DNA of 38,101 bases, taken from assembly GCA_947630665.1 (NCBI GenBank), contig CANRID010000024.1, forward strand, positions 1 through 38,101, read 5' to 3'. The first letter of the stretch is position 1. Each line of letters begins with the position of its first letter. The DNA comes from an uncultured Bacteroidales bacterium (GTDB taxonomy: Bacteria; Bacteroidota; Bacteroidia; Bacteroidales; UBA932). The notes under the pieces were generated by a model. The model had not been told where the DNA came from, made no database searches, and saw nothing but the letters and a program-made list of their open reading frames with translations. Below are positions 3,774 to 33,439 of the stretch, in pieces. The position numbers were made by a program, and so were the translations under genes.

Positions 3774-3851
3774 CAGTCAAGATGAAAATAAGGGAAAGGC
3801 TTCAGATCTGTATCCCGACAGTTTTAAGAGGCCTGCCCAAAAGCGATTTTT

Positions 3852-3880
3852 TCGGTTGCAATTTTTCTGATTGCAGCCGA
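3852..3880. terminator. Hairpin between convergent glsB-like gene and mdh
   Basis: An 11-bp stem (TCGGTTGCAAT at 3852-3862 with ATTGCAGCCGA at 3870-3880, one G-U pair) with a 7-nt loop lies between two convergent genes. It is preceded by TTTTTT on the left, and followed by a T-rich run on the right, so it could end transcripts arriving from either side. The T-tract on the plus strand is interrupted, which lowers confidence. Confidence 0.45.
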
Positions 3881-4023
3881 TTCCTTTATTTTGCCCGCCG
3901 GAGCTTTTGACTTTGTCTCCGGTCCTATGCGGCCATAAACGTCCACATCCAAGTCTCCTATGCGGTTGTTAAGACCGGATCCTGAGTGTTTGTAACTAAA
4001 CTGCTAAATCCATTCCGCCGATT

Positions 4024-5025
4024 TCAGCGTATGTGCGGATTCAGCTCGTTCCATCGGTTCACAGGAGGGAGGATCTCCATAGCGATCACCTCGTCCCGCA
4101 GTTTGCATAAATGACTGTAGCTCTCTTCCAGGTCTTTTTGCTCTGCAGGCGTGCCGGCGGGTTCTTTATAGGAAATGCCGTTTTCAGAAATGGATGTCTC
4201 CATGGCCATCATAATATGATTGTATTTTCCTTGAGATACATACACTCCTGCCGGCCAGCGGAAAGGCCGTCCTCCCATGGCAGCCGCTATCATTTCAACG
4301 GATAAATAAGCCGGACTCTGGAAAGAAGAGCGTCCGCGCAGCTCGATAATGTGCTTCCCTCCCTGGATCACTCTTTGTCTGAGGTCGTCCCAATCTTGCC
4401 GGGGCATTTTCTCGGTACCGATCAATTCATTCAGAGGCGTACCGTCTATCGTGGTGGTGGAAGCGAATACGGCCATTTGTTCCCCGTGTCCTCCGTAGGT
4501 GCGGCTATTGAGGATCTTATCTGTCGGGACTTTGAAATATTTGGCCAGTTCGGTCTGCAGGCGGGTGCTGTCGAGCGCGGCCAAAGTAGAAACCTGCGAT
4601 GGCTTCAGACCGGAATAAAGCAGAACGATCAGTCCGGTAATGTCGGCCGGGTTGAAAATGACCGTTACATGTTTTACATCGGGGCAATAGGTACGGATAT
4701 CTTTTCCTAATTGCATGGCGATCTGTGCGTTGCCTTTAAGCAGGTCTTCCCGTGTCATGCCTGCTTTCCTGGCAGCTCCGCCGGAAGATATGATATAGGA
4801 GGCTCCCGACAGGGCTTCTTCGATATCGGAGGTAAAGGTGATATTGGCCCCTTCGAAGCCGCAATGGAACAATTCTTCGGCGACTCCTTCCAATGCCGGA
4901 GCGAATGGGTCGTACAGGCAGATATTGGGAGTCAGTTTCATCATCAGGGCGGTTTGCGCCATATTGGAGCCGATCATGCCGGCGGCTCCTACGATTGTCA
5001 GTTTGTCTTGGGTTGAATATTTCAT
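4024..5025 (-). CDS. mdh: Malate dehydrogenase
   Basis: 333 residues, the full length of the Bacteroidales form. It interconverts malate and oxaloacetate with NAD(H) in the cytoplasm; in these fermenters it normally runs toward malate, feeding fumarate and succinate formation. The dinucleotide-binding loop GAAGMIG is at residues 13-19, substrate-binding arginines are in GGAARKAGMTRED (R86, R92), the D152/R155 pair is in ALDSTR, and the catalytic histidine is H180 in TYGGHGEQM. It is the last gene of a minus-strand series, 107 bp after the EamA gene, so it may also have its own promoter; TATATTCG on the minus strand at 5056-5063 is a one-mismatch -7 candidate. Confidence 0.95.
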   Translation of the reverse strand: MKYSTQDKLTIVGAAGMIGSNMAQTALMMKLTPNICLYDPFAPALEGVAEELFHCGFEGANITFTSDIEEALSGASYIISSGGAARKAGMTREDLLKGNAQIAMQLGKDIRTYCPDVKHVTVIFNPADITGLIVLLYSGLKPSQVSTLAALDSTRLQTELAKYFKVPTDKILNSRTYGGHGEQMAVFASTTTIDGTPLNELIGTEKMPRQDWDDLRQRVIQGGKHIIELRGRSSFQSPAYLSVEMIAAAMGGRPFRWPAGVYVSQGKYNHIMMAMETSISENGISYKEPAGTPAEQKDLEESYSHLCKLRDEVIAMEILPPVNRWNELNPHIR

Positions 5026-5132
5026 ATCAGTTTTGTTTTACAATGATACGGGTACGAATATAAGGATTTTTCCTGAAAGCCCGTTCACCCGGGAAGAATT
5101 ATATTCGATAACGGGAAGTGGTGCCGGCTTCC

Positions 5133-6068
5133 TTATATGCCCTTATCGCCTTTGGAGGGCGGTCTTTCGCTTGTTTTCCGCTGGGCGAGAATCACCAGGA
5201 AAACCGCCACGAATATCAGCGCCATACCCGCGCCCTGAGGCAAATCGAGCCTCTCGCCGAAGAAAATGATGCCCATGATGACGGCGGTAAGGGGTTCCAT
5301 GCAGCCTAATATGGCCGTGGTGGTGGAACCGATCATATGAATGGCATAAATAAGGGTCAAATCGGAAATGAGCGTGGGCAGCAAAGCCAGCGCAAGGGCA
5401 TTCGCCCAGGCCCCTCCGTCGGGAAGCATATCGAAACGGGCTCCCTTTACGAGAATATTGCACAGAAAAATAAATGCCGAATCCACCAGTACGTAAAAGG
5501 TCATTTTCATCCCGTTTATATGATTGATTGCGGGGGTTTTATTGACTCCTACGATATAGGAGGCATAGGTAAAGACCGTCAGGAGTACCATGAGCAATCC
5601 TTTTAAGGGAATCGCTCCGGCAGCGTCCGCAGACGTGCTTCCCGTCCATCCTCCGCACAGGAAATAGACGCCCGCTATGGCCAGTATGATGGCGGATATT
5701 TTTTCCCCGGATACTTTTTCCCGGAAAAAGAGGATCATGAAGACAGCTACCAGTACGGGATATAAAAAGTGGATGGTGGTAGCTATGCCGCTGGGAATAT
5801 ACTGATAGGACCCGGTCAGGAACATGGAGGTGGCCGCATAGAAGACGGTAAGGAAAAACAGGCTCACAAATTCCCTGAAAGTCACTTTAAGACTGATTTT
5901 CTTGATCGTGAGGAAGATGCCCATTATAAGGGCGGAAAAGAAAAACCGGTAGAAACATACCGAATCCAACCCCACTCCGTTCTTCAGAAGAGGAATGGAA
6001 AACAACGGAATGAATCCGAAGGTGGCGGAGGATATGATAGCCAGCAAAAGCCCCTTGAATTTTTTCAT
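5133..6068 (-). CDS. EamA/DMT-family transporter
   Basis: 311 residues from the ATG at 6068; a TTG three codons upstream would extend it slightly. About ten hydrophobic helices in two EamA-type halves (roughly 1-140 and 160-300). Conserved features include a helix-1 GFIPLFS/YRFFFSA region and the second-half motif STTTAILGCMEPLTAVIMGIIFFGE characteristic of drug/metabolite exporters. Substrate is not predictable; family members export amino acids, nucleobases or other metabolites across the inner membrane. It lies 48 bp downstream of the DUF3298 lipoprotein gene and upstream of mdh on the same strand. Confidence 0.88.
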   Translation of the reverse strand: MKKFKGLLLAIISSATFGFIPLFSIPLLKNGVGLDSVCFYRFFFSALIMGIFLTIKKISLKVTFREFVSLFFLTVFYAATSMFLTGSYQYIPSGIATTIHFLYPVLVAVFMILFFREKVSGEKISAIILAIAGVYFLCGGWTGSTSADAAGAIPLKGLLMVLLTVFTYASYIVGVNKTPAINHINGMKMTFYVLVDSAFIFLCNILVKGARFDMLPDGGAWANALALALLPTLISDLTLIYAIHMIGSTTTAILGCMEPLTAVIMGIIFFGERLDLPQGAGMALIFVAVFLVILAQRKTSERPPSKGDKGI

Positions 6069-6116
6069 GGCGTGCAAAAGTACATAAAAAAACGGAAGGG
6101 GCGATAAGCTATTTTT

Positions 6117-6821
6117 TTATATCCCGACAGGAAAATCTTTTATCTCCAGAAAATCTTTCAATTCGGTTGCCGGTACATTTATTTCCACCGGACCGCAGGC
6201 GTATGCGCCCAGAATATACTGGTCATAGGTGAACGTTACGTACTCCGGAGTAATGTTTATGGCCGTAGCGGATTCTACGGTAGGTTTCTCCGTAAAACAC
6301 CCGTCGGGATCCTGGAAATATTCTTCCAGCAGCCGGTCGATTTGTGCGGTGCATTCGGGTTTGAAAAGCGACTTTTTATCTAATTGCTTTTCGGCGGAGA
6401 TGTCGTAGTTGTAACTGTAGAAACAGGTCATCCCGTGCGCTCCACCCGTAAAGGTATATACCATATAGCGCAGGCTCACGAAATTATCGGCGGCCATGAA
6501 AACGGAGTCCTTGATATACAGCTCGTATTTCATTTCGGGAGGCAGATAGGGTTTGGTTTCGAGAGCTTCTTCCCTGAATTTCGCGATGGTATCGTTCAGG
6601 CCTCTTTCGATCTCCTGATTGTACCCCTCTAACAGGGCGTTTATTTTATGGGAGTCCGAGTGTATCAATATATAATCGGCCTCTACGATGGAAGCGCTGT
6701 CGGAAAGCCGGATGGCTTTTTCCGTGGTATATACTTCGGCGCGTCTGGCGCATCCGCAGAGCAGTGTGGCCAGCAGAAGGACAAGAAAGGCAAGTCCGGA
6801 AGAGGATGAATAATGTCTCAT
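6117..6821 (-). CDS. Lipoprotein with DUF4163/DUF3298 (RsiV-like) domains
   Basis: 234 residues from the ATG at 6821. A hydrophobic signal (about 9-22) ends in the lipobox-like LCGC with C24 as the probable lipidated cysteine, so the protein should be anchored in the envelope. The body resembles the PdaC/RsiV-type DUF4163 plus DUF3298 pair: the hallmark TGGAHGMT stretch near residue 115-125 is followed by a long C-terminal half ending with an F-T-Y-D-x-Y pattern and a G-P-V-E segment. Some relatives bind lysozyme or act in peptidoglycan deacetylases, but no catalytic domain is seen here. A TTG start at 6887 would bury the signal and is rejected. It follows the S9D peptidase by 71 bp on the same strand. 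Confidence 0.75.
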   Translation of the reverse strand: MRHYSSSSGLAFLVLLLATLLCGCARRAEVYTTEKAIRLSDSASIVEADYILIHSDSHKINALLEGYNQEIERGLNDTIAKFREEALETKPYLPPEMKYELYIKDSVFMAADNFVSLRYMVYTFTGGAHGMTCFYSYNYDISAEKQLDKKSLFKPECTAQIDRLLEEYFQDPDGCFTEKPTVESATAINITPEYVTFTYDQYILGAYACGPVEINVPATELKDFLEIKDFPVGI

Positions 6822-6892
6822 TTTCAGTAATGTTAGTAAAAACTGTTTATTTTCTGTTTCGATTCGTCTCGATTGTTGTCGTGTCAATTGTT

Positions 6893-9478
6893 CTATTCGC
6901 GGTCCGGTTCGTCGTCTTGGTCCGGTCCGGCTTTTTGGGCGGGCTGTCTGTTCTTGACATATTTATCCAAGTGCTGGTAGGTTTCCCATCCTAACTGGAG
7001 CAGGTTTTCCTTAGTAGAGTAGCCGTGGCTTTCGTATGGCAGCAATACTAACCTGACCGTTCCGCCGTTGCCCTGAATGGCGGCGTACAACCGGATGCTT
7101 TGTATGGTGAAAGTCCCGGGATTGTTATCGTCCAGACCATGAACCAGCAGAATCGGACTCTTTATTTTGTCGGCATAGGCAAACGGGGACATCTCCATAT
7201 AAACGTTTTTGGCCTTCCAAAAGTTCCGGCTTTCATTTTGAAATCCGAATGGGGTCAGTGTACGGTTATAAGCGCCGCTTCTGGCGATTCCCGCAGCGAA
7301 GAGATCCGAGTGGGCCAGCAGGTTGGCCGTCATGAATGCCCCATAGGAATGGCCTCCCACTGCTACGCGCGTAGAATCCCCGATTCCCATGTCCGCTACT
7401 TTCTTGATGGCTGCTTTGGCGTTGTTTACCAGATCTTTGATATAATTGTCGTTTGGCTGCACCTTTTCGCTGCCGATAATCGGGAAAGAGGCGTCGTTCA
7501 ATACCGCATATCCCATAGGAACGATCATCAGTATGGAAGAGCGGCTGATAGTCGTATATTTGTTGGGCGAGTCTTTTCTCTGTTGGGCGAGTTCTTTGTC
7601 GCGATATTCCGCAGGGTAGGCCCAGATAAAAAGCGGCAGCGGTTCTTCACCCTTGTAATCGGCCGGAGTATAAAGCGTCCCCCGGAGCAGTACGGAGTCT
7701 TCGCGATAATATTCGACCGTTTGTTTTTTTATGTTGCGGACGAGAGACTCTATCGGAGATCGGAAGGAAGTGAGCCGGATGTCTTTTTTGCCGAAATCTT
7801 CCAAAAGAAGATAGTTCGGAAATTCTTCCTGGCTTTCCCGCTTGGTAATGAATATGCCTTTTTTCAGATCGAGGAATTCCACAGGCTCTTCATAATAAGG
7901 GTCCCGACAGCTCCACACCGTAGTAAAAAGTTTCTTTTTCAGATTGTAGCGGGTAATATACGGATAGGCTCCGGCGGCTGAATATCCCGGGTTGCTGAAA
8001 TATATGGTGGCATATTTGTCCGGAGAATAGACCGTTTCATTGCCGTATTTGTTGGGCATGGTTACCGGTGTTCCCGCAGATGCGTACAGGTCTCTGGATT
8101 TTACGCTGTATATCAGATCGAGGGAGGATGTCTTTACTAATCCTAAGGTATCGCCCTCGTAGCGAGGCCGCGAGGTATTCGTAAAGTCCTTTACGAAATA
8201 CAGTTCGTCTTTTTTCTCTTTTTCATTGGTAACCGATACGAATATATTCAGGGAGTCGCACCAATGAATCCGGCGGATGTTAAAGTCCGGATAAAAAATG
8301 GCCTGAGCCTGAGTATCGAAAGGAGCGTTCCATTCCATAATCTTTTTATAGGTCTTGGTTTTCGGTTTTTTCCCTTTGGGACTCTTGTCGCCGCTTGTGT
8401 CTTTTGCCGCGGAATCCGCAGCGACTTTATAGCTTTCGTACCAATATAAGGAAGCTGCCTTGTCGGGACGCCAGGCGAAACCGCTTCTTTTTTCCTTATC
8501 ATCTTTGTTACCGTTGCCCACGGAAAGTCCTTTGGTAATGATGGTATCTATTTTTTCCCCGTTTTTATTCCACAGCTCCAGTGAATTGGGAAATTGGTTA
8601 TATCCTACCTGGTAGGAGTACGGCCTGTAGACGTAACGCACGAGCATGTATTTTCCGTCGGGAGAATAGCTGTAATAAGTATAAACGGCGTCTTTCCCTA
8701 TTTTTTTGACGGTGCCATCCGGCGAAACGGTCGCTATGGATGATGTAGCATAATAATCGAACAGATATTCATCGTATTTATCCGTCAGCAGATCCTGATA
8801 GGTGCGTACGCCTCCTTTTTGGCCGGAGCTTTCCTGAATGGTCGGAGTTGCCGGAAATTCTTTGCCCCGGGCTTTGGGAGACAGGGGACGGTCCTCGGGA
8901 ATCAGGGGTACGGTTACCGATTTACTGTCGGGAGTCCATTGGAAAAGATTGGGACCGAAAAATAAATTCAGCTTCCGGTCCGAACACCGGTGTGCAGTGC
9001 CGGAATTTACGTCCGCTATCCATAAATAAACTCCGTCCGCCTCCTCTATGGCTGCTGCCAGATAATTACCGTCGGGAGACCATTTGCAGTGAAGGATTCT
9101 GACATCTTCGCCAAATCCCCGGATAATGCCCTGGAATCCGTTTTGGCCAGGAAGATTTTTAATCTCTATCTGAGTAATGACGGATTTGACCAATGGGCTG
9201 TTAGTGGAGACGAGTACCCGCTGGCCGGCCAGTCTGACATCTTCCCTGGATTGTTCTTGGTTGGTAGGAAGGTCGTTTATACTGAAAACCGCGAATTTGT
9301 TTTTCAAGGGAGAAAAGGAAACTGTGGGGATGGCCGGAGCCAGAATGATGTCCTCCATTTGTTTGGGCGGAATCTTGTAACCTTGTTCCCCAGTGTCCGT
9401 TTGCGCCTGGATAAGGCCGGTTCCCCCGGACAATAAGAGTGTCAGAAATAGGATGCCGATGAGTCTCAGAGTTTTCAT
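6893..9478 (-). CDS. S9 family peptidase, glutamyl-endopeptidase-like (S9D)
   Basis: 861 residues. A Sec signal peptide (about 1-25, ending near IQAQ) is revealed by starting at the ATG at 9478 rather than at an upstream non-ATG codon. Several WD/PD40-like segments with S-P-D-G-x-Y signatures (around residues 134, 251, 271) form the N-terminal propeller of a prolyl-oligopeptidase fold. The C-terminal alpha/beta hydrolase carries Ser711 in GGHSYGAF, Asp784 in HGLDDNNPGT and His818 in YESHGYS. The LFIWAYPAEYRDK segment (about 617-629) with the following SPNKY is the signature I associate with chloroplast glutamyl endopeptidase, placing it in S9D. Role: extracytoplasmic peptide degradation. It is the first gene of a minus-strand series and diverges from perR. 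Confidence 0.88.
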   Translation of the reverse strand: MKTLRLIGILFLTLLLSGGTGLIQAQTDTGEQGYKIPPKQMEDIILAPAIPTVSFSPLKNKFAVFSINDLPTNQEQSREDVRLAGQRVLVSTNSPLVKSVITQIEIKNLPGQNGFQGIIRGFGEDVRILHCKWSPDGNYLAAAIEEADGVYLWIADVNSGTAHRCSDRKLNLFFGPNLFQWTPDSKSVTVPLIPEDRPLSPKARGKEFPATPTIQESSGQKGGVRTYQDLLTDKYDEYLFDYYATSSIATVSPDGTVKKIGKDAVYTYYSYSPDGKYMLVRYVYRPYSYQVGYNQFPNSLELWNKNGEKIDTIITKGLSVGNGNKDDKEKRSGFAWRPDKAASLYWYESYKVAADSAAKDTSGDKSPKGKKPKTKTYKKIMEWNAPFDTQAQAIFYPDFNIRRIHWCDSLNIFVSVTNEKEKKDELYFVKDFTNTSRPRYEGDTLGLVKTSSLDLIYSVKSRDLYASAGTPVTMPNKYGNETVYSPDKYATIYFSNPGYSAAGAYPYITRYNLKKKLFTTVWSCRDPYYEEPVEFLDLKKGIFITKRESQEEFPNYLLLEDFGKKDIRLTSFRSPIESLVRNIKKQTVEYYREDSVLLRGTLYTPADYKGEEPLPLFIWAYPAEYRDKELAQQRKDSPNKYTTISRSSILMIVPMGYAVLNDASFPIIGSEKVQPNDNYIKDLVNNAKAAIKKVADMGIGDSTRVAVGGHSYGAFMTANLLAHSDLFAAGIARSGAYNRTLTPFGFQNESRNFWKAKNVYMEMSPFAYADKIKSPILLVHGLDDNNPGTFTIQSIRLYAAIQGNGGTVRLVLLPYESHGYSTKENLLQLGWETYQHLDKYVKNRQPAQKAGPDQDDEPDRE

Positions 9479-9632
9479 GTTCGGAATATTGACGGTTATT
9501 ATAATGAAATATTCAATAAGTGTGGTATCATGCAGGCTGCATTTGTCCGCAGCCACGGCTGGGCCGGCCGTTACAAATTTACAATAAAATTCCGAATGCA
9601 AAATACTGTCGGGAGTAATTTATTTAAAAATA

Positions 9633-9664: not shown

Positions 9665-9682
9665 CCCTGAAATAACAAGGAT

Positions 9683-10114: not shown

Positions 10115-10137
10115 ACATTTATTAAACATTTACAGTT

Positions 10138-10713: not shown

Positions 10714-10717
10714 TAAA

Positions 10718-10835: not shown

Positions 10836-11071
10836 TTATTTATAAATAAATGCTCTTTTGCCGTCCTCCGCGTTATAAGAGCTTGTCATGCTTTTGTCTC
10901 CGGGGTAAATCCTGTTTTCCCGATAGGAGACGAGATAATGATCCCCCTCGTTAATCACTTTTTGACCGTAACCATGGCAAGAGACCTGTACCGGTAGGTC
11001 CTTATCGCATGATTGGAGAAACGGGGAAAGCAATTAACAAGGGGGAAAAGGAGCCGTTTTAATTTTTTCAT
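10836..11071 (-). pseudogene. Frameshifted small lipoprotein gene
   Basis: An ATG at 11071 opens a frame beginning MKKLKRLLFPLV, a textbook signal-peptide start. Nearby, in the frame shifted by one base insertion or two base loss, reading runs L-L-S-P-F-L-Q-S-C-D-K-D and then about 53 more residues to the stop at 10836. Joining the two across 11034-11037 gives a signal peptide ending in the lipobox-like LQSC, with a mature domain of about 57 residues rich in Tyr, Gly and charged residues. The second frame alone would need a TTG start and lack the basic n-region. I do not recognise the family. The break may be a real mutation or an assembly error. Confidence 0.35.
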
Positions 11072-11287: not shown

Positions 11288-11839
11288 ATGGAGGAAAGAG
11301 AACTCTCAGAACGTTGTAAAAAGGGAGACAATGTCGCCAGGAAATTGCTCTATGAGGATTTTTCCGGGCGGCTGTTTTCCATTTGCCTGCGTTATCTGGG
11401 CGACTATCCTGCTGCCGAGGATCTGCTGCATGACGTATTTCTGAAAATATTCCGCTCGTTCGATAAATATACATGGCGGGGAAACGGTTCGCTTCGGGCG
11501 TGGTTAGAGCGGGTAACGGTAAATGCGTCATTGGAATATCTGAGAAAAAACAGGACTTCCATACTCCCGGTTCCTCTGGACGAGGAAGGTTTGCAGGAGT
11601 ATGAGTCTCCCGACGATTCTTTCGTGAGCAGGATCCCCCCGGGGGAACTGATGAAGTTTGTAATGGATCTTCCTTACGGATACCGCACGGTGTTTAATTT
11701 ATACGTGTTCGAAGAAAAATCGCATCGGGAGATCGCGCAGATATTGGGAATCAACGAGAAATCTTCTTCATCCCAATTATTCCGGGCCAAACGGATTCTG
11801 GCCGGGAAAATAAAAGCGTATATCAAGGAGCAGGAGTAA
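11288..11839 (+). CDS. ECF-family RNA polymerase sigma factor
   Basis: 183 residues, typical of sigma-70 ECF proteins. Region 2 spans about residues 10-78, with the -10-melting segment around D-L-L-H-D-V-F-L-K-I-F and the following aromatic/basic stretch. Region 4 spans about 118-178 with the H-R-E-I-A-Q-I-L-G-I helix-turn-helix that reads the -35 box. It redirects RNA polymerase to a small stress or envelope regulon. The next gene starts one base after the stop codon, so the two should be co-translated, and that gene encodes the likely cognate anti-sigma factor. Confidence 0.93.
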   Translation: MEERELSERCKKGDNVARKLLYEDFSGRLFSICLRYLGDYPAAEDLLHDVFLKIFRSFDKYTWRGNGSLRAWLERVTVNASLEYLRKNRTSILPVPLDEEGLQEYESPDDSFVSRIPPGELMKFVMDLPYGYRTVFNLYVFEEKSHREIAQILGINEKSSSSQLFRAKRILAGKIKAYIKEQE

Positions 11840-11840
11840 T

Positions 11841-13193
11841 ATGGATGATATGGAAAACGGGAATGAAAAATGGCTGGAACAGTTGAAAGACTCCCTGAAA
11901 GACTATCGGGAGCCCGTTCCTCCGTCCGTAAAGGAAAAATTGGAAAAAGAATGGCGGGAACCCGGAAAGACGGTCTTTTTTATTTTTCTCCGCAGAGCCG
12001 CATCTGTGGCTGCAGCGTTGTTTGTGCTGGCCTTTTCCGTAAAATGGCTGTTGGGGCCGCAACAGGAGCCCGTCCGGGTAGCGGAACCGGAGAAAGACCG
12101 GCCGGAATGGCTGACCGAAAATAAAAGTACGGAGCCGCTTTCATCCCGACAATACGACTTATTCCGCACTCCGGAGGAAAATCCGGAAAACAGAGAAACA
12201 AGGCCGCAGTCAGACCGGATGCAGGAATTGTCCGGAGCGGAGAAAGAATCCGGAGAAAATGTAGAGAACGGGACGAATGTATCTTCGCAGGAGAAGATCG
12301 TCGAGGAAACAGAGGGAAAATATATTCATGGAACAAAAGATACAACCCGGGAAAACAAGAACGGGCCGGCGGTGGAGCAAGTGGGGGCAGACGTGATGCA
12401 GGCACGGGAAGAAGCGGCGGAGGCGGATGCAGCCTCCCGGAAGGAAAGTAAAGACGGGAAAAAGCGCGGAAGGGTTGCCGGACGATATAAAAAAATACGG
12501 GTGGTGGATGCTTCTCCGGCAGATTCGAAGCGTGGAGAGGGTGGCTCCGGATGGCAAACAGGTTTGGCGGTGGCCAACTCCGGGATTTCTTCCAAAAGTT
12601 CTCCGGGAGGCGGAGGCGGCCTGCCCAACTCTTCCGTTATGAACTCCCCGAATGATTTCACAGCGGTTCCGTCCGATTTGAAAGTGGTATTTTTTAACGG
12701 TTCCCCTTATCTGGACAACGAGAAAACATTTTCCTACAAACATAAACAACCTCTGAGCTTCGGGTTGTATATCGGCCGCAGCGTAACGCCTCGTATCTCC
12801 ATAGAAACGGGGTTGGTTTATACATTGCTTATGTCCGATGTAACTGACGATACCGGCGCCGGGTTCCGGCAGACCCTTCATTTTTTGGGGATTCCGGTCC
12901 GCGCCAACTGGAGTTTTCTGGAGAGGAAGAACTTTTCTTTGTATCTGGGGGCGGGAGGAATGCTGGAAAAATGCGTCTCCGGTACTTTGGGCCGGGAAAA
13001 GGTCTCCATGAAAGAATGGCAGTATTCGGTTTTCGCCGCTCCCGGAATACAATATAATCTGGGAGGCCGGTTCAATATCTATTTCGAACCCGGCGCCGCC
13101 TACTTTTTCGACAATAAATCCGACATACGCACCATCCGGCAGGATTCCCCGTTGAATTTTACCTTGCAACTGGGTTTCCGCCTTGCCTACTAA
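11841..13193 (+). CDS. Dual-membrane-spanning anti-sigma factor candidate (Dma-like)
   Basis: 450 residues with a striking layout. Residues 1-50 are cytoplasmic, helical and contain V-P-P-S-V-K-E-K-L-E-K-E-W, which resembles the sigma-binding N-terminus of Bacteroidetes anti-sigma factors. One transmembrane helix follows (about 53-72, after R51-R52). Residues 73-235 are a charged, low-complexity stretch long enough to cross the periplasm. Residues about 237-450 look like an outer-membrane beta-barrel of the porin/PorT type: alternating strands, G-L-Y-I-G, G-I-P-V-R-A-N-W, F-E-P-G-A-A-Y, and a terminal aromatic Y450. A class of such proteins (Dma) paired with ECF sigma factors has been reported in Bacteroides thetaiotaomicron, affecting vesiculation. 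Assignment here is by architecture and by its one-base spacing from the sigma gene; the signal sensed is unknown. Confidence 0.75.
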   Translation: MDDMENGNEKWLEQLKDSLKDYREPVPPSVKEKLEKEWREPGKTVFFIFLRRAASVAAALFVLAFSVKWLLGPQQEPVRVAEPEKDRPEWLTENKSTEPLSSRQYDLFRTPEENPENRETRPQSDRMQELSGAEKESGENVENGTNVSSQEKIVEETEGKYIHGTKDTTRENKNGPAVEQVGADVMQAREEAAEADAASRKESKDGKKRGRVAGRYKKIRVVDASPADSKRGEGGSGWQTGLAVANSGISSKSSPGGGGGLPNSSVMNSPNDFTAVPSDLKVVFFNGSPYLDNEKTFSYKHKQPLSFGLYIGRSVTPRISIETGLVYTLLMSDVTDDTGAGFRQTLHFLGIPVRANWSFLERKNFSLYLGAGGMLEKCVSGTLGREKVSMKEWQYSVFAAPGIQYNLGGRFNIYFEPGAAYFFDNKSDIRTIRQDSPLNFTLQLGFRLAY

Positions 13194-25177: not shown

Positions 25178-26329
25178 TTATAAAGTCCGGTAAAATTCCA
25201 TTAGCTTATTGCAAAAATTGCTCCACGAAAGCCTGTCTTTTTCCCGGATGATATTTTTTATCATTTCATTCCTCGCCGTTTCTCCGCCCGATCTGCCCTC
25301 CGGAGCCGGAGCATCCCCAAAGTAAATGCGGATAGCCGATGCGACCGCATCCGGGTCGGGCCGATCCACGATCATGCCGGTGCCTCTGTCTCCGATGGTC
25401 TCTTTAAGGCCTCCTGCAGCGGTGGTAATCATCGGGACTTCAAAATGATAGGCCACCGAGCTGACGCCGCTTTGGGTGGCTGAGCGGTAAGGCAATACGC
25501 ACACGTGGGCGGCGGAAAAATAAATCCCTACCCGGCTGTCGGGAATATAATGGGTCGTCAGGTAAATATTCTCCTTCAACGGCGATTCGTCGATCAGCTT
25601 CCTGTACTTCTCGAAACTCCCGTAAGGTTCTCCTGCTATGATCAGTTGGTAGGAGGAATCGAGCTGGGAGAACGCTTCTATGAGGATATCCAATCCTTTA
25701 TATTCCCGGATAAGTCCGAAGAACAGAATGTTTTTCTTGTTTTTTTGTATCCCGATGGTTTTTTCGGCCTCTTCTCTTTCGAGCTTCCGCCCGAAATGGG
25801 AATAGAGCGGATGAGGAATATTCAGATAACGCGCCCGGGGCATAAAACTGAGCAAATCGTTTTTGACCGCATCGCACAATACGATGTATCCGTCATGGGG
25901 CTTTAGAAAATAGCGGGTGAACGGCCGGTCGAAAAAGCGGGGCTCGTGCGGAATGACATTATCTAAGATGGAGATGATTTTGCAGTTTTCATTCATGTGC
26001 CGGGCCACGTATCCCAAGGACGGGGCGAAATAGCTCATCCAGTAACGCATCACCAACAGATCCGGTCCCCAGTTTCGGATAGCCTTAGCCGTGGATACAT
26101 ACGAAAAAGGATTTGCCGTATCCAGCAGGGCTTCGGCCTGCACGGGTACGGCATTGTCTTCCGGAGTCACATATTGTGTTTTTCCCGGGAACAGCAGATT
26201 GGGATATTGGCGCTTGAAATTGAACGCCTTGACGGTATGCCGCTTGCCGAGTTCCTCCAGCAGGCAGGCATTGAACTGCGAAATTCCCCCTCTGTACGGG
26301 TAAAAACACGATAATATTGCGATCTTCAA
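25178..26329 (-). CDS. GT4-family glycosyltransferase
   Basis: 383 residues with a GT-B fold. The N-terminal half opens with K-I-A-I-L-S-C-F-Y-P-Y-R-G-G-I-S-Q, the usual glycine-rich acceptor-side loop. The C-terminal half has F-F-G-L-I-R-E-Y-K-G-L-D (about 206-217) and P-Y-R-S-A-T-Q-S-G-V-x(n)-E (about 285-300), the GT4 donor-binding region with the first Glu of the E-x7-E motif replaced. No signal or membrane helix, so it likely works at the cytoplasmic face. Donor and acceptor cannot be told. It is isolated from any polysaccharide cluster, 9 bp after the Skp-like lipoprotein gene, which suggests a house-keeping envelope role. Confidence 0.85.
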   Translation of the reverse strand: MKIAILSCFYPYRGGISQFNACLLEELGKRHTVKAFNFKRQYPNLLFPGKTQYVTPEDNAVPVQAEALLDTANPFSYVSTAKAIRNWGPDLLVMRYWMSYFAPSLGYVARHMNENCKIISILDNVIPHEPRFFDRPFTRYFLKPHDGYIVLCDAVKNDLLSFMPRARYLNIPHPLYSHFGRKLEREEAEKTIGIQKNKKNILFFGLIREYKGLDILIEAFSQLDSSYQLIIAGEPYGSFEKYRKLIDESPLKENIYLTTHYIPDSRVGIYFSAAHVCVLPYRSATQSGVSSVAYHFEVPMITTAAGGLKETIGDRGTGMIVDRPDPDAVASAIRIYFGDAPAPEGRSGGETARNEMIKNIIREKDRLSWSNFCNKLMEFYRTL

Positions 26330-26938: not shown

Positions 26939-26982
26939 ATCAGGATTATTGTTTATTAATTTTACAATTATATTAATTATAT

Positions 26983-27735
26983 TCATTGAATTTCATTTGA
27001 AACGGACAAATATAGAAAAAAATCGGATAACTCCCTGCGGTAAGCCTGAATTGTATTCTCCAGACCCAGATATAAGGCGTCGCATATAAGGGCATGTCCG
27101 ATGGAAACTTCCGATAGCCCGGGGATATTGCGGTTGAAATATCTCAGGTTGTCCAGGTTCAGGTCATGACCGGCATTCAATCCCAATCCGCACCGGACGG
27201 CTTCTTCGGCGGCTTTTACATAAGGCTCGATAGCCGCTTCCCGGTTGCAGGCGTATTTTTTCGCATAACTTTCCGTATAAAGTTCCACCCGGTCGCAGCC
27301 GGTGTCCGCCGCGTTCTTTATCATTTCGGGAACGGGATCGATAAAGATGGAAACCCGTATTCCGTTTTCCTTGAAAGTCTTGCAGATATTTTTAAGGAAA
27401 GTCTTGTTTTTAACGGTATCCCATCCTGCATTGGAAGTGAGGGCATCGGCCGCATCGGGCACTAAAGTTACCTGGGCCGGTCTGACTTTCAGCACCAGTT
27501 CCGTAAAGGCGGGAACGGGATTCCCTTCTATATTGAACTCGGTGGTAAGCACGGGTTTGAGTTCCAGTACGTCCCGATAGCGGATATGCCGCTGGTCCGG
27601 GCGGGGATGCACCGTTATCCCCTGGGCTCCGAATCTTTCGCAATCCAGCGCCGCTTTTATTACATCGGGCAGATTGCCTCCCCGGGCGTTGCGCAGGGTC
27701 GCTATTTTATTGATGTTAACGCTTAAAGTGGTCAT
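26983..27735 (-). CDS. pdxJ: Pyridoxine 5'-phosphate synthase
   Basis: 250 residues from the ATG at 27735. The TIM-barrel enzyme closes the pyridoxine ring from 1-deoxyxylulose-5-phosphate and aminoacetone phosphate. Catalytic H43 ([10 protein letters not shown]), E66/E70 (T-T-E-F-N-I-E-G) and a late His in L-N-A-G-H-D-L-N match the E. coli H45, E72, H193 set. The gene diverges from nadK; an exact -7 element lies upstream at 27801-27808. It appears to head a minus-strand series with the Skp-like lipoprotein, glycosyltransferase, purC and LysM genes. Confidence 0.96.
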
Positions 27736-27800
27736 AATAGAGGCCGATAAAAACCGTAATGAATGTTGTTTCTGTCGGGAAGACGGCTTCCTTCTTATGA

Positions 27801-27808
27801 CAAAAGTA
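27801..27808 (-). promoter_or_regulatory. -7 promoter element of pdxJ
   Basis: On the minus strand the bases read TACTTTTG, an exact TAnnTTTG match, 65 bases before the pdxJ start. No TTTG stands at the proper -33 spacing. Confidence 0.4.
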
Positions 27809-27857
27809 TACATATTTTATTAAAATTGTATATCTTGCGTCAAATTTAAAAGTAAAA

Positions 27858-28772
27858 ATGAAAATTGCCTTTTACGGGAGAAAAATAGATGCGTCTGATT
27901 TTGAAAAACTTTCCCTTCTGATTTCTAAATTGCACACAAGCGGAAAAGTACGGTTTTACTGGTACAGGCCGTTCTATGATTCTTTAAACGGCGGTGTAGG
28001 AGATATTCCCGCGGAGGGATTTTTTACCTCCCATGCGGACCTGCCTCGGGATACGGAACTGTTTTTGGCGTTGGGCGGAGACGGGACTTTTTTGGAATCC
28101 CTGACGTTAGTAAGGGACCGGAAGATTCCGGTTGCCGGAATCAATTTCGGACGGTTGGGCTTTCTGACTACCGCCTATGTGGAGGAAGGGGATGCCTGTC
28201 GGGAAAAATGCAATCTTTGGATCGACCGGCTGCTGAGGGGCGATTATGAAATAGAAAAACGCTCTCTGCTTCATCTGGAATGCCGGTCGGGAATCTTGCC
28301 GGAGGATTTTTACCCGTATGCGTTGAACGAAATCGCTATCCAACGGATCAGTCCCGTAATGATGGAAATAGAAATTGCCGTAGACGGGGATGTCCTTCCG
28401 CGTTATTGGGCGGATGGGATACTTATCGGAAGCGCGACCGGTTCCACGGCCTATTCGTTAAGCATCGGAGGTCCGATCGTGACCCCGGACTCCCGGGTGC
28501 TTATCATTGCTCCTGTCGCGCCCCATAATCTCAATATCAGACCTTTGATCGTTCCCGACAGCTCCCGTATAGAGATATCGTTCCGCAGCCGCCAGAGAAC
28601 CGGACTGCTCACGGCCGATAACCGGTCGTTCGATTTGCCGCAGGGGGAGCGGATAACGATTTCAAAGGCGTCTTTTGATCTGGATTGCGTTTCCGTCAAT
28701 AATAATTTCATCGAAGCTCTTCACCAGAAGCTTTTGTGGGGAGAAGACAGAAGGAATACGCCCAGAAGTTGA
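27858..28772 (+). CDS. nadK: NAD kinase
   Basis: 304 residues. The kinase signature GGDGTFLE is at 73-80, the N-E-I-A-I region near 158-162, and the glycine-rich G-S-A-T-G-S-T-A-Y-S-L-S-x-G-G-P segment near 193-210. It phosphorylates NAD to NADP, feeding the NADPH used by TrxB and GdhA encoded in the same window. It begins a plus-strand run (nadK, uppS, bamA, skp, skp) that is a familiar Bacteroidales order next to divergent pdxJ. Confidence 0.95.
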   Translation: MKIAFYGRKIDASDFEKLSLLISKLHTSGKVRFYWYRPFYDSLNGGVGDIPAEGFFTSHADLPRDTELFLALGGDGTFLESLTLVRDRKIPVAGINFGRLGFLTTAYVEEGDACREKCNLWIDRLLRGDYEIEKRSLLHLECRSGILPEDFYPYALNEIAIQRISPVMMEIEIAVDGDVLPRYWADGILIGSATGSTAYSLSIGGPIVTPDSRVLIIAPVAPHNLNIRPLIVPDSSRIEISFRSRQRTGLLTADNRSFDLPQGERITISKASFDLDCVSVNNNFIEALHQKLLWGEDRRNTPRS

Positions 28773-28805
28773 GAAACCGGCTGTATAATTTTAAGGGAAA
28801 ATAAT

Positions 28806-28813
28806 TATATTTG
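28806..28813 (+). promoter_or_regulatory. -7 promoter element of uppS-bamA
   Basis: TATATTTG, an exact -7 match, lies 32 bases before the uppS ATG and 33 bases after the nadK stop. The -33 position (around 28782) has no TTTG. It may add transcription of uppS-bamA-skp to read-through from nadK. Confidence 0.5.
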
Positions 28814-28845
28814 CGTTTTCTTATGAGAATCTGCGATTGGAAGAT

Positions 28846-29586: not shown

Positions 29587-29619
29587 AGAATTTGTTTTAT
29601 TTGCAGTTACAGAAATTAA

Positions 29620-32142
29620 ATGAGGTTATTTAGAATACTTATTATTTTGGCATTGCTGGCGCCAGTACACCTTTTAGCCCAAAATGAGGATGGGCGTAAT
29701 AACGTTACCGTAGATTATACCAGTCCTAAAAAATATATCATCGGGGGTTTTGCCGTCAGCGGTATCAAATATCTGAGCGAAGACCAGATTCTTTCCATTA
29801 CCGGTCTCCAGAAAGGGGACGAGATTACCGTTCCGAGCGAGGAATTATCCCAAATGCTCAAACGTATATGGGCGCAGCGTTATTTTTCAGATGCCGGATT
29901 CTATATCGATTCCATAAATAATACGAAAGATACTATTATCTTGGGCCTTAGACTGATGGAGCGTCCGCGCGTTTCCAGATGGCAATTCAAGGGAATTAAG
30001 AAATCCGAGCAAACCGATTTGCAGGAAAGGCTCAAGTTCCGCCGGGGTATGGGATTGTCCGATTACATGGTTAAAAACTATATTGATCTCATTAAAAAAT
30101 ATTATGATGAAAAAGGGTTTCTCAAGACGGACGTGAATGTGCTGCAGGAGAATGATACGGTTATTAAAAATGCCGTGAGGGTGACTTTCAATGTCGAGAG
30201 GGGACCCAAGGTGAAGATCAAGAAGATTACCTTTCAGGGAAATGATAATGTAAAGAATTCCAAACTGGCCAAAGCCATGAAGAAAACCAAGGATATGCGG
30301 TTCGCGAATATCCTTAAAAGCAAGAAATTCAATAAAAAGGAATACGATAATGATAAGCAGAGCCTGATCCAGGCGTTTAACGAGGCAGGTTATCGGGACG
30401 CTGTGATTCTGAAAGATTCGATGTATTATATCGAACCCGACAGGCTGAGGCTGGATTTCGTATTCGATCAGGGGAAAAAATATTATTTCAGGGATATAAC
30501 CTGGACGGGAAATTCCATTTATGCCTCCGAACAGCTGAACGATGTCCTCCGGATCAAGAAGGGGGATGTATATGATGTGGTAACGATGCAGAAACGGTTG
30601 TTCGGAGATCCCAAGCAGCAGGATATGGATGTGAGACGGCTTTATACCGACAAGGGATATTTGTTTTTTGACCTGACTCCGGTAGAGCTGAATATCGAAG
30701 GGGATTCCGTGGATGTGGAAATGCGCATCCGGGAAGGCAAGCCCGCTACATTCAATAATGTGATAATAAACGGGAATACCATTACCAACGAGAAAGTGGC
30801 GCGGCGGGCTCTTTTCACCAGGCCCGGTTATCTTTACAGCCAGAGCGATTTTGAAAGATCCATGAGGGAACTGGCTTCCATCGGACATTTCGATCCCGAA
30901 AAAATCATGTCCGAGAGCGGATACAATCTTTTGCCTAATCCTATTAACAATACGGTGGATGTCGCCTATAACGTAGAGGAGAAGCCCAACAGCCAGCTCG
31001 AACTGTCGGGAGGATGGGGCGGAAATACTTTTGTGGGTACTGTCGGGTTGAGTTTCAATAACTTTTCCATTAAAAGAGTTTTCCAGAAGCATGCCTGGAG
31101 ACCCGTGCCGCTGGGGGACGGACAGTCGCTTTCCCTCCGGTTCCAGACCAACGGAACCTATTATACGGCTTTATCGGCAAGTTTCGTAGAGCCGTGGCTG
31201 TTCGGCAAGAAGCCCACTTCCCTGAGTTTGTCTCTCTATTATACGCGCCAGACTAATTCCTATTATTTCTATCAGAACTCCGACGAGTATATGGAAGTGT
31301 TCGGGGCGGCCGTCGGTATCGGTACGCGTTTGAAATGGCCCGATAACTATTTTGTGTTGTATAACGAAATAAGCTGGCAGACCTATAAATTGAAAAACTG
31401 GAATTATAATTTCCTGTTTAATACGGGACTGTCCAATAATTTCAGTTATAAGATTTCCTTGAACCGTAATTCCACGGACCAGCCGATCTATCCCCGTGGA
31501 GGTTCCGATATTATGCTGAGTGTGCAGCTGACTCCTCCGTATTCGCTTTTCCGGAAAAAGGATACGGATTACAAGAATATGCCGGACGAAAAGAAATATA
31601 AATGGATCGAATACCATAAGTGGACTTTCAAGAGCGCGGTATATACGAAGCTGATCGGGGATCTGGTGTTGAAGACGGCGGCCGATTTCGGCTATTTAGG
31701 ATATTACGACCGGAATCTGGGTTATTCTCCTTTCGAGGGTTTCCTGGTCGGCGGTGACGGAATGAGCGGTTATAATACATACGGATCGGAGATCATCGGT
31801 TTGCGCGGGTATCATAATAATACGCTTACGCCGATTATCGACAACGCGTATGCCGGTAACGTTTATGATAAGTTTACTGTGGAGCTGAGGTATCCGGTGG
31901 TATTGCAACCGCAGTCCACCATTTATGCGTTGCTGTTTTTGGAAGGTGGTAACTGTTGGTCGGATATCAAGAAGTTCAATCCGTTCTCTATCAAAAGATC
32001 GGCTGGCATAGGACTGCGCGTGATGCTTCCGATTGTCGGGATGCTGGGGATAGACTGGGGATATGGATTCGATCATGAAAATTCGGACGGATTCCTCAAG
32101 GGAGGCAGTAATTTCCACTTCGTAATAGGGCAGCAATTCTAA
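29620..32142 (+). CDS. bamA: Outer membrane protein assembly factor BamA
   Basis: 840 residues. A signal peptide (about 1-20, cut after LLA) is followed by POTRA domains over about residues 35-450; repeated patterns such as F-K-G-I-K, F-Q-G-N-D-N-V-K and W-T-G-N-S mark their strands. The 16-strand barrel occupies about 460-840, starting near G-G-W-G-G and ending in Q-Q-F with a terminal Phe. The loop-6 signature appears as G-L-R-G-Y. BamA is the essential insertase for beta-barrel proteins. With uppS before it and two Skp genes after it, the cluster couples outer-membrane protein delivery and insertion. Confidence 0.96.
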   Translation: MRLFRILIILALLAPVHLLAQNEDGRNNVTVDYTSPKKYIIGGFAVSGIKYLSEDQILSITGLQKGDEITVPSEELSQMLKRIWAQRYFSDAGFYIDSINNTKDTIILGLRLMERPRVSRWQFKGIKKSEQTDLQERLKFRRGMGLSDYMVKNYIDLIKKYYDEKGFLKTDVNVLQENDTVIKNAVRVTFNVERGPKVKIKKITFQGNDNVKNSKLAKAMKKTKDMRFANILKSKKFNKKEYDNDKQSLIQAFNEAGYRDAVILKDSMYYIEPDRLRLDFVFDQGKKYYFRDITWTGNSIYASEQLNDVLRIKKGDVYDVVTMQKRLFGDPKQQDMDVRRLYTDKGYLFFDLTPVELNIEGDSVDVEMRIREGKPATFNNVIINGNTITNEKVARRALFTRPGYLYSQSDFERSMRELASIGHFDPEKIMSESGYNLLPNPINNTVDVAYNVEEKPNSQLELSGGWGGNTFVGTVGLSFNNFSIKRVFQKHAWRPVPLGDGQSLSLRFQTNGTYYTALSASFVEPWLFGKKPTSLSLSLYYTRQTNSYYFYQNSDEYMEVFGAAVGIGTRLKWPDNYFVLYNEISWQTYKLKNWNYNFLFNTGLSNNFSYKISLNRNSTDQPIYPRGGSDIMLSVQLTPPYSLFRKKDTDYKNMPDEKKYKWIEYHKWTFKSAVYTKLIGDLVLKTAADFGYLGYYDRNLGYSPFEGFLVGGDGMSGYNTYGSEIIGLRGYHNNTLTPIIDNAYAGNVYDKFTVELRYPVVLQPQSTIYALLFLEGGNCWSDIKKFNPFSIKRSAGIGLRVMLPIVGMLGIDWGYGFDHENSDGFLKGGSNFHFVIGQQF

Positions 32143-32285
32143 ACGGAGGGGTCCGTGGAAGAGGTCATAAATCGTGTGCGTATATTGTTTCGGCGGGGGA
32201 GAGTCAACCGTTTTAACGGAAAAGATGTTGTATTGTTACCGGAATGTAAAAATTAAAAAGAAAGTTGGTTAAATATCAAAAGATT

Positions 32286-32795
32286 ATGAAAAGGTTTGTT
32301 TTATTGGTGCTGGCGGCCGTATTTTGTTCGCTGACACTGAGAGCCCAGAAAATCGGGTACATGAATACCGAGACCATATTATCTAAAATTCCTGAATATG
32401 CTGCGGCTCAAGAACAACTTGAAAAACTTAACGATCAATATAAATCGAGGATTGAAAACGATTATAAGGACATCGAGCGGCTCTATCAGAGCTATCAATC
32501 TTCCAAAGCTTCGCTCTCCGAGTATCAGAGGAGCCAGCGGGAATCCGAAATTATCAGCAAGGAGCGGGCGGTAAAGGAATTGCAGAAGACTTATTTCGGT
32601 CCCGACGGTTATATGCAGAAAAAAACGGAAGAGCTTTTGACTCCTATCCGGAATAAAGTGCAGGGTGCAATCGATAAAATTGCAAAAGAAGAGGGATTTA
32701 TGCTTATCTTTGATCTCGCAGCCCTCCAGGGAGTGGTGTATGATAACCCTCAGTACGACTTAAGTGCCAGAGTTTTAACAATATTGAACTATTAA
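32286..32795 (+). CDS. Skp/OmpH-family periplasmic chaperone (first copy)
   Basis: 169 residues from the ATG at 32286; an upstream start would add seven residues before the signal peptide. Signal residues 1-20 (ends L-R-A-Q). The mature protein has the Skp layout: strand K-I-G-Y-M-N-T-E, coiled coil about 40-115, closing strand F-M-L-I-F-D. It should form trimers that hold unfolded outer-membrane proteins in the periplasm before delivery to BamA. The 143-bp gap after bamA has no clear terminator. Confidence 0.92.
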   Translation: MKRFVLLVLAAVFCSLTLRAQKIGYMNTETILSKIPEYAAAQEQLEKLNDQYKSRIENDYKDIERLYQSYQSSKASLSEYQRSQRESEIISKERAVKELQKTYFGPDGYMQKKTEELLTPIRNKVQGAIDKIAKEEGFMLIFDLAALQGVVYDNPQYDLSARVLTILNY

Positions 32796-32823
32796 ATAAA
32801 AATCAATAAATTAAAATTTGAAT

Positions 32824-33381
32824 ATGAAAAACATTACAAGGGTTTTAGGAGTAGCTCTGATGCTGGTTTCCGCCCAATCATTCGCTCAAAATTTTAAATT
32901 CGGCCATGTGAATCTTCAGGAGCTGGTGGCATTGATGCCGGAAATGGATTCAGCCAATGTGAAACTGGAGAAATATGCCAAGGAACTGGATGAAACGATG
33001 GGAGGCATGCAATCCGAACTCCAGACTAAATTCGCCGATTATCAGCAGAAAAGCAGTACATGGACAGCCGCCATACTGGAGGCGAAGCAACGCGAATTGA
33101 ACGAGATGCAGCAACGTCTGTCGCAGTTCCAGGAAAACGCGAATCAGGAATATATGACTATGCGTAATTCTTTATATGCGCCTATCGTAAAGAAAGCAAG
33201 CGATGCTTTGGAGAAAATCGGAAAAGACAACGGTTTTACTTATATTTTCGATTTGTCTTCCGCCAGTATCCCGTATGTAAACGAGAGCGTAAGCGTGGAT
33301 GTAATGCCGATGGCCAAAAAGGCCCTTGATATTCCGGCGGATAAAAAATTACCGGTACCGCAGCAGGCTCAGGCCAATTAG
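32824..33381 (+). CDS. Skp/OmpH-family periplasmic chaperone (second copy)
   Basis: 185 residues from the ATG at 32824. Signal peptide about 1-21 (ends S-F-A-Q). Mature part: strand F-K-F-G-H-V-N-L-Q-E-L, a coiled coil about 45-120 rich in Gln, and closing strand F-T-Y-I-F-D-L, followed by a Pro/Gln-rich tail. The two adjacent copies have diverged clearly, so they are an old duplication and may serve different clients. A strong terminator ends the run 58 bp downstream; murI, which I recall following this cluster in many Bacteroidales, is not here. Confidence 0.92.
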   Translation: MKNITRVLGVALMLVSAQSFAQNFKFGHVNLQELVALMPEMDSANVKLEKYAKELDETMGGMQSELQTKFADYQQKSSTWTAAILEAKQRELNEMQQRLSQFQENANQEYMTMRNSLYAPIVKKASDALEKIGKDNGFTYIFDLSSASIPYVNESVSVDVMPMAKKALDIPADKKLPVPQQAQAN

Positions 33382-33439
33382 AGTTCCGCGGGCTGTCGGG
33401 AAAACAGCAACAGTGCCAGGTAAAAAAGAGTTAAAAGAG

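What the first reader, a model, noticed from the sequence alone, without database searches (positions are those of the whole stretch)
3813..33401. Strongly over-represented 9-mer CTGTCGGGA, a possible Chi, uptake or segregation signal
Sixteen exact copies were found by eye in about 30 kb (11 on plus, 5 on minus), roughly fifty times the random expectation. They use all six coding phases (for example Leu-Ser-Gly, Cys-Arg-Glu, Pro-Asp-Ser, Ser-Arg-Gln) and also lie in four non-coding gaps, so they look selected as DNA, not as protein. Density, about one per 2 kb, is like that of the DNA uptake sequences of Pasteurellaceae and Neisseria or of Chi sites. I know of no such motif described for this group. 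Part of the signal may come from a preference for CCCGAC at Pro-Asp codons, since CGTCGGGA is also common.
Basis: partly seen in the sequence, partly recalled or inferred. Interest (0 to 1): 0.8.

Follow-up and report, generated by a model that had tools for sequence, protein, structure and literature searches.

The report
Genome-wide DNA signpost word in Bacteroidales
A nine-letter DNA word recurs hundreds of times across this uncultured bacterium's genome, far beyond chance and with other versions in related species, and may be a signpost that tells the cell's DNA-repair machine which DNA is its own.

Summary
The window has 17 exact CTGTCGGGA (shuffle mean 0.18); the 2.24-Mb genome has 586, against 21 for the reversed word. 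In 438 kb, coding DNA has 103 against 5.3 after synonymous-codon shuffling and intergenic DNA 17 against 0.3. It is selected as DNA.

The fuller consensus is YYRTCGGGA with an A-rich 3' side, about one per kb. Relatives use words with the same start: YRTCGGGA followed by A at +3, YATCGCNGA, and YATCGGCC in another clade (up to 3127 copies).

Both strands carry equal numbers, without leading-strand bias. Sites of the same orientation avoid each other within 1 kb, opposite ones do not (725 against 936 pairs, eight genomes); control words in four genomes show the reverse. The word seems to be read one strand at a time.

An AddAB-type helicase-nuclease is encoded (AddB fold supported; its nuclease family is in 27 of 27 genomes searched). 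A type IV pilus motor passed cut-off in 0 of 27, and sites are not concentrated between genes or at gene ends. Chi-like is most likely (0.5), uptake possible (0.2), segregation not supported. My literature searches found no such motif in Bacteroidota. No function was tested.

The parts
2579..2587 (+). variant CCGTCGGGA
2902..2910 (-). variant CCGTCGGGA
3127..3135 (+). variant CCGTCGGGA
3658..3666 (+). variant CCGTCGGGA
3813..3821 (-). exact CTGTCGGGA, intergenic
4521..4529 (+). exact CTGTCGGGA
4804..4812 (-). exact CTGTCGGGA
5416..5424 (+). variant CCGTCGGGA
6122..6130 (-). exact CTGTCGGGA, at the 3' end of its ORF
6301..6309 (+). variant CCGTCGGGA
7902..7910 (-). exact CTGTCGGGA
8460..8468 (+). 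variant TTGTCGGGA
8655..8663 (+). variant CCGTCGGGA
8925..8933 (+). exact CTGTCGGGA
9069..9077 (+). variant CCGTCGGGA
9606..9614 (+). exact CTGTCGGGA, intergenic
10918..10926 (-). variant CTATCGGGA, intergenic
11608..11616 (-). variant TCGTCGGGA
11903..11911 (+). variant CTATCGGGA
12144..12152 (-). variant TTGTCGGGA
13260..13268 (+). exact CTGTCGGGA
16237..16245 (-). variant TTGTCGGGA
17259..17267 (+). variant TTGTCGGGA
17962..17970 (-). variant CCATCGGGA
18454..18462 (+). exact CTGTCGGGA
20007..20015 (-). variant CCGTCGGGA
20725..20733 (+). variant CCGTCGGGA
23023..23031 (+). exact CTGTCGGGA
23392..23400 (-). exact CTGTCGGGA
24682..24690 (+). variant CCGTCGGGA
25429..25437 (+). variant TCATCGGGA
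25536..25544 (+). exact CTGTCGGGA
25750..25758 (-). variant CCATCGGGA
27572..27580 (-). variant CTATCGGGA
27772..27780 (+). exact CTGTCGGGA
28196..28204 (+). exact CTGTCGGGA
28553..28561 (-). exact CTGTCGGGA
30390..30398 (+). variant TTATCGGGA
31003..31011 (+). exact CTGTCGGGA
32033..32041 (+). variant TTGTCGGGA
32600..32608 (-). variant CCGTCGGGA
33393..33401 (+). exact CTGTCGGGA, intergenic
37371..37379 (-). variant CCGTCGGGA

Best explanation
YYRTCGGGA is a genome-wide, strand-specific DNA landmark kept by selection, most likely the Chi-equivalent of this lineage's AddAB helicase-nuclease. Inferred mechanism: AddAB enters at a broken end and degrades DNA; when the strand passing through AddB carries the word in the right orientation, AddB holds it, degradation of that strand stops and RecA is loaded for repair by recombination. 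DNA without the species' word is destroyed. Sites on each strand serve ends coming from one side only, so each strand must be covered separately. Shown here: the over-representation at DNA level, the consensus, the dialects, equal numbers on both strands, avoidance of same-orientation neighbours in the larger samples, and presence of AddA- and AddB-like proteins. Inferred: that AddB reads the word.
For: DNA-level selection in all phases, both gene orientations and intergenic DNA. Strand-specific spacing: same-orientation pairs within 1 kb 725 against 936 opposite over eight genomes; the share of same-orientation pairs is 0.44, 0.40, 0.46 and 0.39 in four genomes against a mean of 0.55-0.58 for 150 control words each, reached by 1, 0, 2 and 1 of them; in G009 opposite pairs are at expectation (140 against 139) while same pairs are 92, with same-strand gap CV 0.76 against 0.99 (0 of 1000 simulations). 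Convergent and divergent pairs are about equally frequent, which speaks against a paired site. A reader is present: L174 (contig C45) encodes an AddB-like protein (four cysteines at its nuclease domain invariant in 54 aligned homologues; best Foldseek hits the B chains of B. subtilis AddAB, then RecBCD chains) next to an AddA/RecB-like helicase; the nuclease family PF12705 is over cut-off in 27 of 27 genomes searched. Dialects keep the 5' part (YRTCG) and change the 3' part, as E. coli and Pseudomonas Chi do (first five bases kept; PMC5959072, passages). Coding and intergenic densities are similar and sites are not drawn to gene ends.
Against: No leading-strand skew, though passages of PMC5959072 say skew is not seen in P. 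syringae and is insignificant in B. subtilis, S. aureus and H. influenzae. Alternation is not seen in three small samples (G011 15 of 34, G003 19 of 48, G016 24 of 49), is not significant in G007 (33 of 54) and G004 (102 of 194), and the pair count in G080 alone has P 0.07; evenness of gaps by CV is clear in G009 only, of four tested. PF12705 occurs also in genomes without a strong excess of any of the three words (G008, G014). Six other Bacteroidales clades sampled show no comparable word. The motif with its 3' A-rich side is longer than the known 5- to 8-base Chi sites. Nothing direct links AddB and the word.
Confidence: 0.5

Rival explanations
1. It is a DNA uptake sequence: a surface or periplasmic receptor for natural transformation prefers DNA carrying the species' word, and transformation itself drives the word up in number; dialects act as barriers between species.
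For: Density about one per kb (up to 3127 in 2.4 Mb); no orientation bias, as for DUES (PMC1939737, passages); dialects with a shared core, as in Neisseriaceae (PMC3630211, abstract); AT-rich 3' flank (z 7.9, 6.0, 4.7, 2.4 in four genomes; largest |z| of 40 control words 2.6, 3.3, 2.8, 2.2), reminiscent of the USS AT tracts (PMC7811141, passages); patchy distribution; exact CTGTCGGGA slightly denser between genes (0.36 against 0.26 per kb). ComEC in G000 and HHH_3, the ComEA-type DNA-binding domain, in 27 of 27 genomes searched. A Bacteroidota species transforms with ComEC, DprA, ComF, RecA and proteins unlike known machinery (PMC8459023, abstract and two sections).
Against: No type IV pilus motor over cut-off in 27 of 27 genomes searched. 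No enrichment at gene ends and little or none between genes for the full consensus; hardly any inverted pairs (one pair of TGTCGGGA under 60 bp in 438 kb). Same-orientation-only avoidance is not expected if one site of either orientation suffices for a fragment.
Confidence: 0.2
2. It is a polar segregation signal (KOPS/FRS-like) that points from origin to terminus.
For: Non-palindromic, short, repeated genome-wide.
Against: Leading/lagging 58/62 in G000 and 96/99 on 220 kb of G009 despite clear replication skew over the first 120 kb.
Confidence: 0.02
3. It is a by-product of codon or dinucleotide preference or of repeats.
For: CCGTCGGGA copies concentrate in the Pro-Asp phase.
Against: 19-fold above synonymous shuffles in coding DNA, 17 against 0.3 in intergenic DNA; flanks are not shared, so it is no dispersed repeat; six other Bacteroidales clades give no such word with the same method.
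Confidence: 0.03

Closest known systems
Chi sites of RecBCD/AddAB (E. coli GCTGGTGG, P. syringae GCTGGCGC)
   Same: Short, asymmetric, genome-wide over-represented, apparently strand-specific, cognate type of helicase-nuclease present; 5' part kept and 3' part changed between lineages; equal strand numbers as reported for Pseudomonas (PMC5959072 passages)
   Different: No leading-strand skew as in E. coli; longer motif with an A-rich 3' side; activity untested; several dialects inside one genus of the tool's taxonomy
DNA uptake sequences (DUS of Neisseriaceae, USS of Pasteurellaceae)
   Same: Density, no orientation bias, AT-rich 3' flank, dialects with a shared core
   Different: No type IV pilus motor found, no bias to gene ends and little to intergenic DNA, hardly any inverted pairs, avoidance limited to sites of the same orientation
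KOPS / FtsK-orienting sequences (recalled)
   Same: Short, non-palindromic, genome-wide
   Different: Not polar
HIP1 of cyanobacteria (name recalled; GGCGATCGCC in a passage of PMC1939737)
   Same: Very over-represented oligonucleotide of debated role
   Different: HIP1 is palindromic; this word is not

Membership tests
Chi site | genome-wide over-representation beyond codon and composition effects | tested here: met
Chi site | cognate RecBCD/AddAB-type enzyme encoded | tested here: met
Chi site | acts in one orientation only | tested here: inconclusive
   indirect: same-orientation avoidance; clear in the larger samples, absent in three small ones
Chi site | leading-strand skew (E. coli; reported absent or insignificant in other species, so not defining) | tested here: not met
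   PMC5959072 passages
Chi site | attenuates the nuclease and stimulates recombination | not testable with these tools
   needs purified enzyme or a genetic system
DNA uptake sequence | hundreds to thousands of copies, no orientation bias | tested here: met
DNA uptake sequence | recognised through a type IV pilus minor pilin (ComP; ComN predicted for USS, PMC12616744, search listing only) | tested here: not met
   PF00437 over cut-off in 0 of 27 genomes (weak sub-threshold stretches in 24), 13 of 14 control genomes over it; the genomes are incomplete MAGs and pilins themselves were not searched
DNA uptake sequence | bias to intergenic DNA or gene termini, inverted pairs | tested here: not met
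   comparison
DNA uptake sequence | preferential uptake of DNA with the word | not testable with these tools
   no culture
KOPS-like segregation signal | polarity along each replichore | tested here: not met

The most novel reading that the evidence does not exclude
A new kind of strand-specific genome landmark in Bacteroidota, neither Chi nor a pilus-based uptake sequence: each strand is marked separately about every 2 kb with a lineage-specific dialect word (YRTCG core plus a changing 3' part), read by an undescribed directional machine, for instance a pilus-independent uptake or self-recognition system.
Probability: 0.25. Interest if true: 0.92.

Novelty: new variant of a known kind. Interest (0 to 1): 0.72.

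Why it matters
If it is Chi, it would give a candidate Chi sequence for Bacteroidota (the listings showed none; those papers were not all read) and natural variants showing how Chi specificity changes along with a fast-diverging AddB (30-45% identity in 30 of 36 pairs among nine proteins, some partial). If it is an uptake sequence, it would imply sequence-specific natural transformation without a known pilus motor in uncultured Bacteroidales. Either way the dialects predict barriers to gene exchange between relatives, and the orientation-avoidance statistic is a simple test for strand-specific motifs in any genome.

Tried and rejected
Inverted pairs or terminators: one pair of TGTCGGGA under 60 bp in 438 kb. 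Dispersed repeat: flanks not shared. Paired-site (looping, head-to-head) requirement: convergent pairs are about half of the opposite pairs within 1 kb (G000 177 of 374, G009 73 of 140, G080 152 of 297). Fixed sites: 12 of 125 G000 sites are conserved in G009 orthologues (6.5 expected; G007 5 of 30 against 1.5, G011 4 of 30 against 1.7), so conservation is about two- to threefold chance but most positions turn over. Depletion in foreign DNA: the longest word-free stretch (11 kb, 0.025 such gaps expected) holds a restriction-modification island, but the next two hold a ribosomal protein and an ATP-grasp gene, and a SusD/glycosidase locus (eight proteins scanned); suggestive only. Mismatch gradient (relative excess 39.6, 3.1, 0.48 for 0, 1, 2 mismatches): for 0 and 1 mismatch it lies between the published gradients for an uptake sequence and E. 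coli Chi; it does not decide. AddB by sequence against the PDB: no match at E up to 1; by fold: AddB. PADLOC hits to the AddA/AddB-like proteins are generic UvrD and Cas4 domains. The YATCGCNGA dialect is less clean: the pattern is also raised in genomes outside the group (G047 386 against 80, G052 378 against 97, G060 480 against 49), and YATCGGCC is raised 2.9-fold in G060 (L069), which lies outside the YATCGGCC clade. Gene-half bias: of ten tests one reached P 0.04 (G080 antisense, first half). Positive-control genomes (Haemophilus, Neisseria, Pseudomonas) for the orientation statistic could not be reached with the caps left.
Full report
The observation. CTGTCGGGA occurs 17 times in the window, 11 on + and 6 on -, against a shuffle mean of 0.18. 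The copies use all six coding phases and three lie between genes. The window belongs to a 2.24-Mb, 93%-complete genome in 60 contigs (G000). That genome holds 586 copies (300 forward, 286 reverse) against 21 of the word read backwards. The nearest named relatives found by UppS are Bacteroidales MAGs RGIG1816, SIG158 and RGIG8530 (L049-L051); their whole-genome counts equal those of the same-genus genomes G011, G017 and G015.

Not codons, not repeats. I read 400 kb of the genome plus the window. With my own ORF-based gene calls, coding DNA has 103 copies against 5.3 in shuffles that keep the protein and codon choice given the next base; intergenic DNA has 17 against 0.3; it is the first 9-mer in both rankings. 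Sense copies are 62 (60 shuffles: mean 3.4, maximum 8), antisense 41 (mean 1.3, maximum 4). Flanks are not shared apart from a weak A-rich 3' side. In the table of single substitutions, transitions at the first three positions keep a large excess (T 9.1-fold, C 11.4-fold, A 7.0-fold, against 25.6-fold for the consensus); elsewhere the highest are A at position 7 (5.2-fold, 4 copies) and T at position 5 (2.9-fold, 11 copies). The motif is thus YYRTCGGGA: 417 copies in 438 kb, 684 in 738 kb and 43 in the window.

Dialects. In 24 other same-genus genomes the count of CTGTCGGGA runs from 7 to 485, while 16 genomes of other families of the order have 2 to 39. Sampling relatives showed other words. 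TTGTCGGGA leads among 9-mers in G005 and G007, CTGTCGGGA in G001, G009 and G011. In G009 and G007 the motif continues with A three bases after the core (77 and 78%). G003, G004 and G016 have YATCGCNGA with G next and a raised A (50-67%) at the same place. G080 and kin have YATCGGCC. Whole-genome counts over 40 genomes, word against reversed word: YRTCGGGA 2224/159 in G000, 1646/327 in G009, 1627/302 in G007; YATCGCNGA 1115/96 in G010, 932/80 in G016, 854/111 in G004; YATCGGCC 3127/303 in G080, 2235/291 in G061, 1829/215 in G071. G008 and G014 have at most a 2.2-fold excess of any of the three. YATCGCNGA is also raised in some genomes outside the group (G047, G052, G060), so it is the least clean. 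In a UppS tree of 81 rows, 17 of them labelled by word density in their locus, the six YATCGGCC loci form one clade (99/97) away from the window's clade; G060 (L069), with a 2.9-fold excess, lies outside it. Six other Bacteroidales clades sampled with 50-194 kb each show no comparable word (best z 5.3 to 8.1 each, against 15.6 and 17.4 in the two positive clades). The dialects share YRTCG at the 5' end.

Strand behaviour. Forward and reverse counts are nearly equal (YRTCGGGA in G000 1118/1106 and G001 371/376; YATCGGCC in G048 593/596). Position-3 skew marks the + strand as leading in each of the five G000 contigs sampled, taken whole (the last 40 kb of C2 go the other way), yet exact copies are 58 on + and 62 on -. 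On 220 kb of G009 the counts are 96 and 99, close in each 20-kb bin (largest difference 9 against 13), although skew is clear over the first 120 kb. A polar signal is therefore not supported. A further property is unusual. Within 1 kb, pairs of the same orientation are fewer than opposite pairs: G000 295/374, G009 92/140, G080 254/297, G004 41/63, G007 11/23, G011 8/9, G003 11/13, G016 13/17; in all 725/936 (pairs are not independent, so the binomial P of 2.5e-7 is only a guide; G080 alone has P 0.07). Ordinary words of like frequency show the reverse (mean share of same-orientation pairs 0.55-0.58); of 150 control words per genome, 1, 0, 2 and 1 reach the values of G000, G009, G080 and G004. 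Alternation of neighbours exceeds all 150 controls in G000, G009 and G080; in G004 12 controls reach it. In G009 opposite pairs are at expectation (140 against 139), and same-strand gaps are markedly even (CV 0.76 against 0.99, 0 of 1000 simulations); in G000, G080 and G004 the CV is not reduced. Three small samples (34-49 neighbour pairs) show no alternation. Convergent and divergent pairs are about equal. The simplest reading is that the word is read in one orientation at a time, each strand needing its own coverage.

Placement. Densities of the full consensus in coding and intergenic DNA are alike (G000 0.95 and 0.77 per kb, G009 0.80 and 1.04, G080 1.41 and 0.96, G004 0.41 and 0.33, G007 0.71 and 0.70) and sites are not drawn to gene ends; exact CTGTCGGGA is 0.26 and 0.36 per kb. 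Uptake sequences are reported to be biased to gene termini in Pasteurellaceae (PMC2346458, abstract) and to have 35% (H. influenzae) or 65% (N. gonorrhoeae) of copies outside reading frames (from a passage of PMC1939737). In aligned orthologues 12 of 125 G000 sites persist in G009 (6.5 expected): density is kept while most positions turn over.

Weighing. Chi fits the strand-specific spacing, the placement and the enzyme. The lack of skew does not count against it: passages of PMC5959072 report equal strand numbers for Pseudomonas Chi (1119 and 1122) and insignificant skew in three other species, and note that Pseudomonas and E. coli Chi share the first five bases and differ at the 3' end, as the dialects here do. 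Uptake fits density, dialects, patchiness and the AT-rich 3' flank, but not placement, same-orientation avoidance or the missing pilus motor. I put Chi-like at 0.5, uptake at 0.2, a different directional reader at about 0.25, and the remainder on polarity or artefact. No function was tested.

Literature. Searches for the word itself (154 papers hold the letters, 15 listings seen, none about bacterial repeats by title), for uptake sequences in Bacteroidetes (0 and 3 papers), for Chi/AddAB in Bacteroidetes (2 papers; 60 papers, 12 listed) and for over-represented oligonucleotides in Bacteroidales (299 papers, 10 listed) showed no description of it; most of these were seen as listings only, and only open-licence papers are held.

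Limits. The genomes are incomplete assemblies; gene calls are mine; the genus name was not given; dialects were found from samples of about 15-740 kb; known USS or Chi genomes could not be run through the orientation statistic.

Noticed in passing
window 952-2373 +: TIR domain joined to Sel1 repeats (473 aa), with weak matches to TIR proteins of anti-phage systems.
   Followed up: no
L012 15536 to L013 6554 (G000 C1 75.5-86.6 kb): Longest word-free stretch (11 kb, G+C 0.43) holds an N4/N6 DNA methylase, an MjaI-type restriction enzyme and a T5orf172 protein: probably a recently gained restriction-modification island.
   Followed up: partly
L034-L038 (G003 samples): A repeat array of about 16 units that looks like CRISPR inflates k-mer counts; repeats were masked but not.
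   Followed up: no
G000 intergenic DNA (L009-L028 and window): TACCTTTG and TACATTTG are over-represented between genes (12 against 1.3, 13 against 2.2), probably the Bacteroidota promoter element TAnnTTTG (recalled).
   Followed up: no
L044-L048 (G016 samples): Intergenic words AAGAAGGC and GCAAAGAA, 16 copies each against about 1 expected, unexplained.
   Followed up: no
L174 9902-12850; L241-L244: AddB diverges strongly between species of one genus: 32-42% identity between G000, G001, G004 and G009.
   Followed up: partly
G012, G013, G021 (whole genomes): G012 and G013 have both YRTCGGGA (606/115, 608/136) and YATCGCNGA (184/21, 475/25) raised, while exact CTGTCGGGA is rare (8 and 10 copies): possible intermediate dialects. 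G021 has CTGTCGGGA raised (125/20) but not YRTCGGGA (446/394).
   Followed up: no
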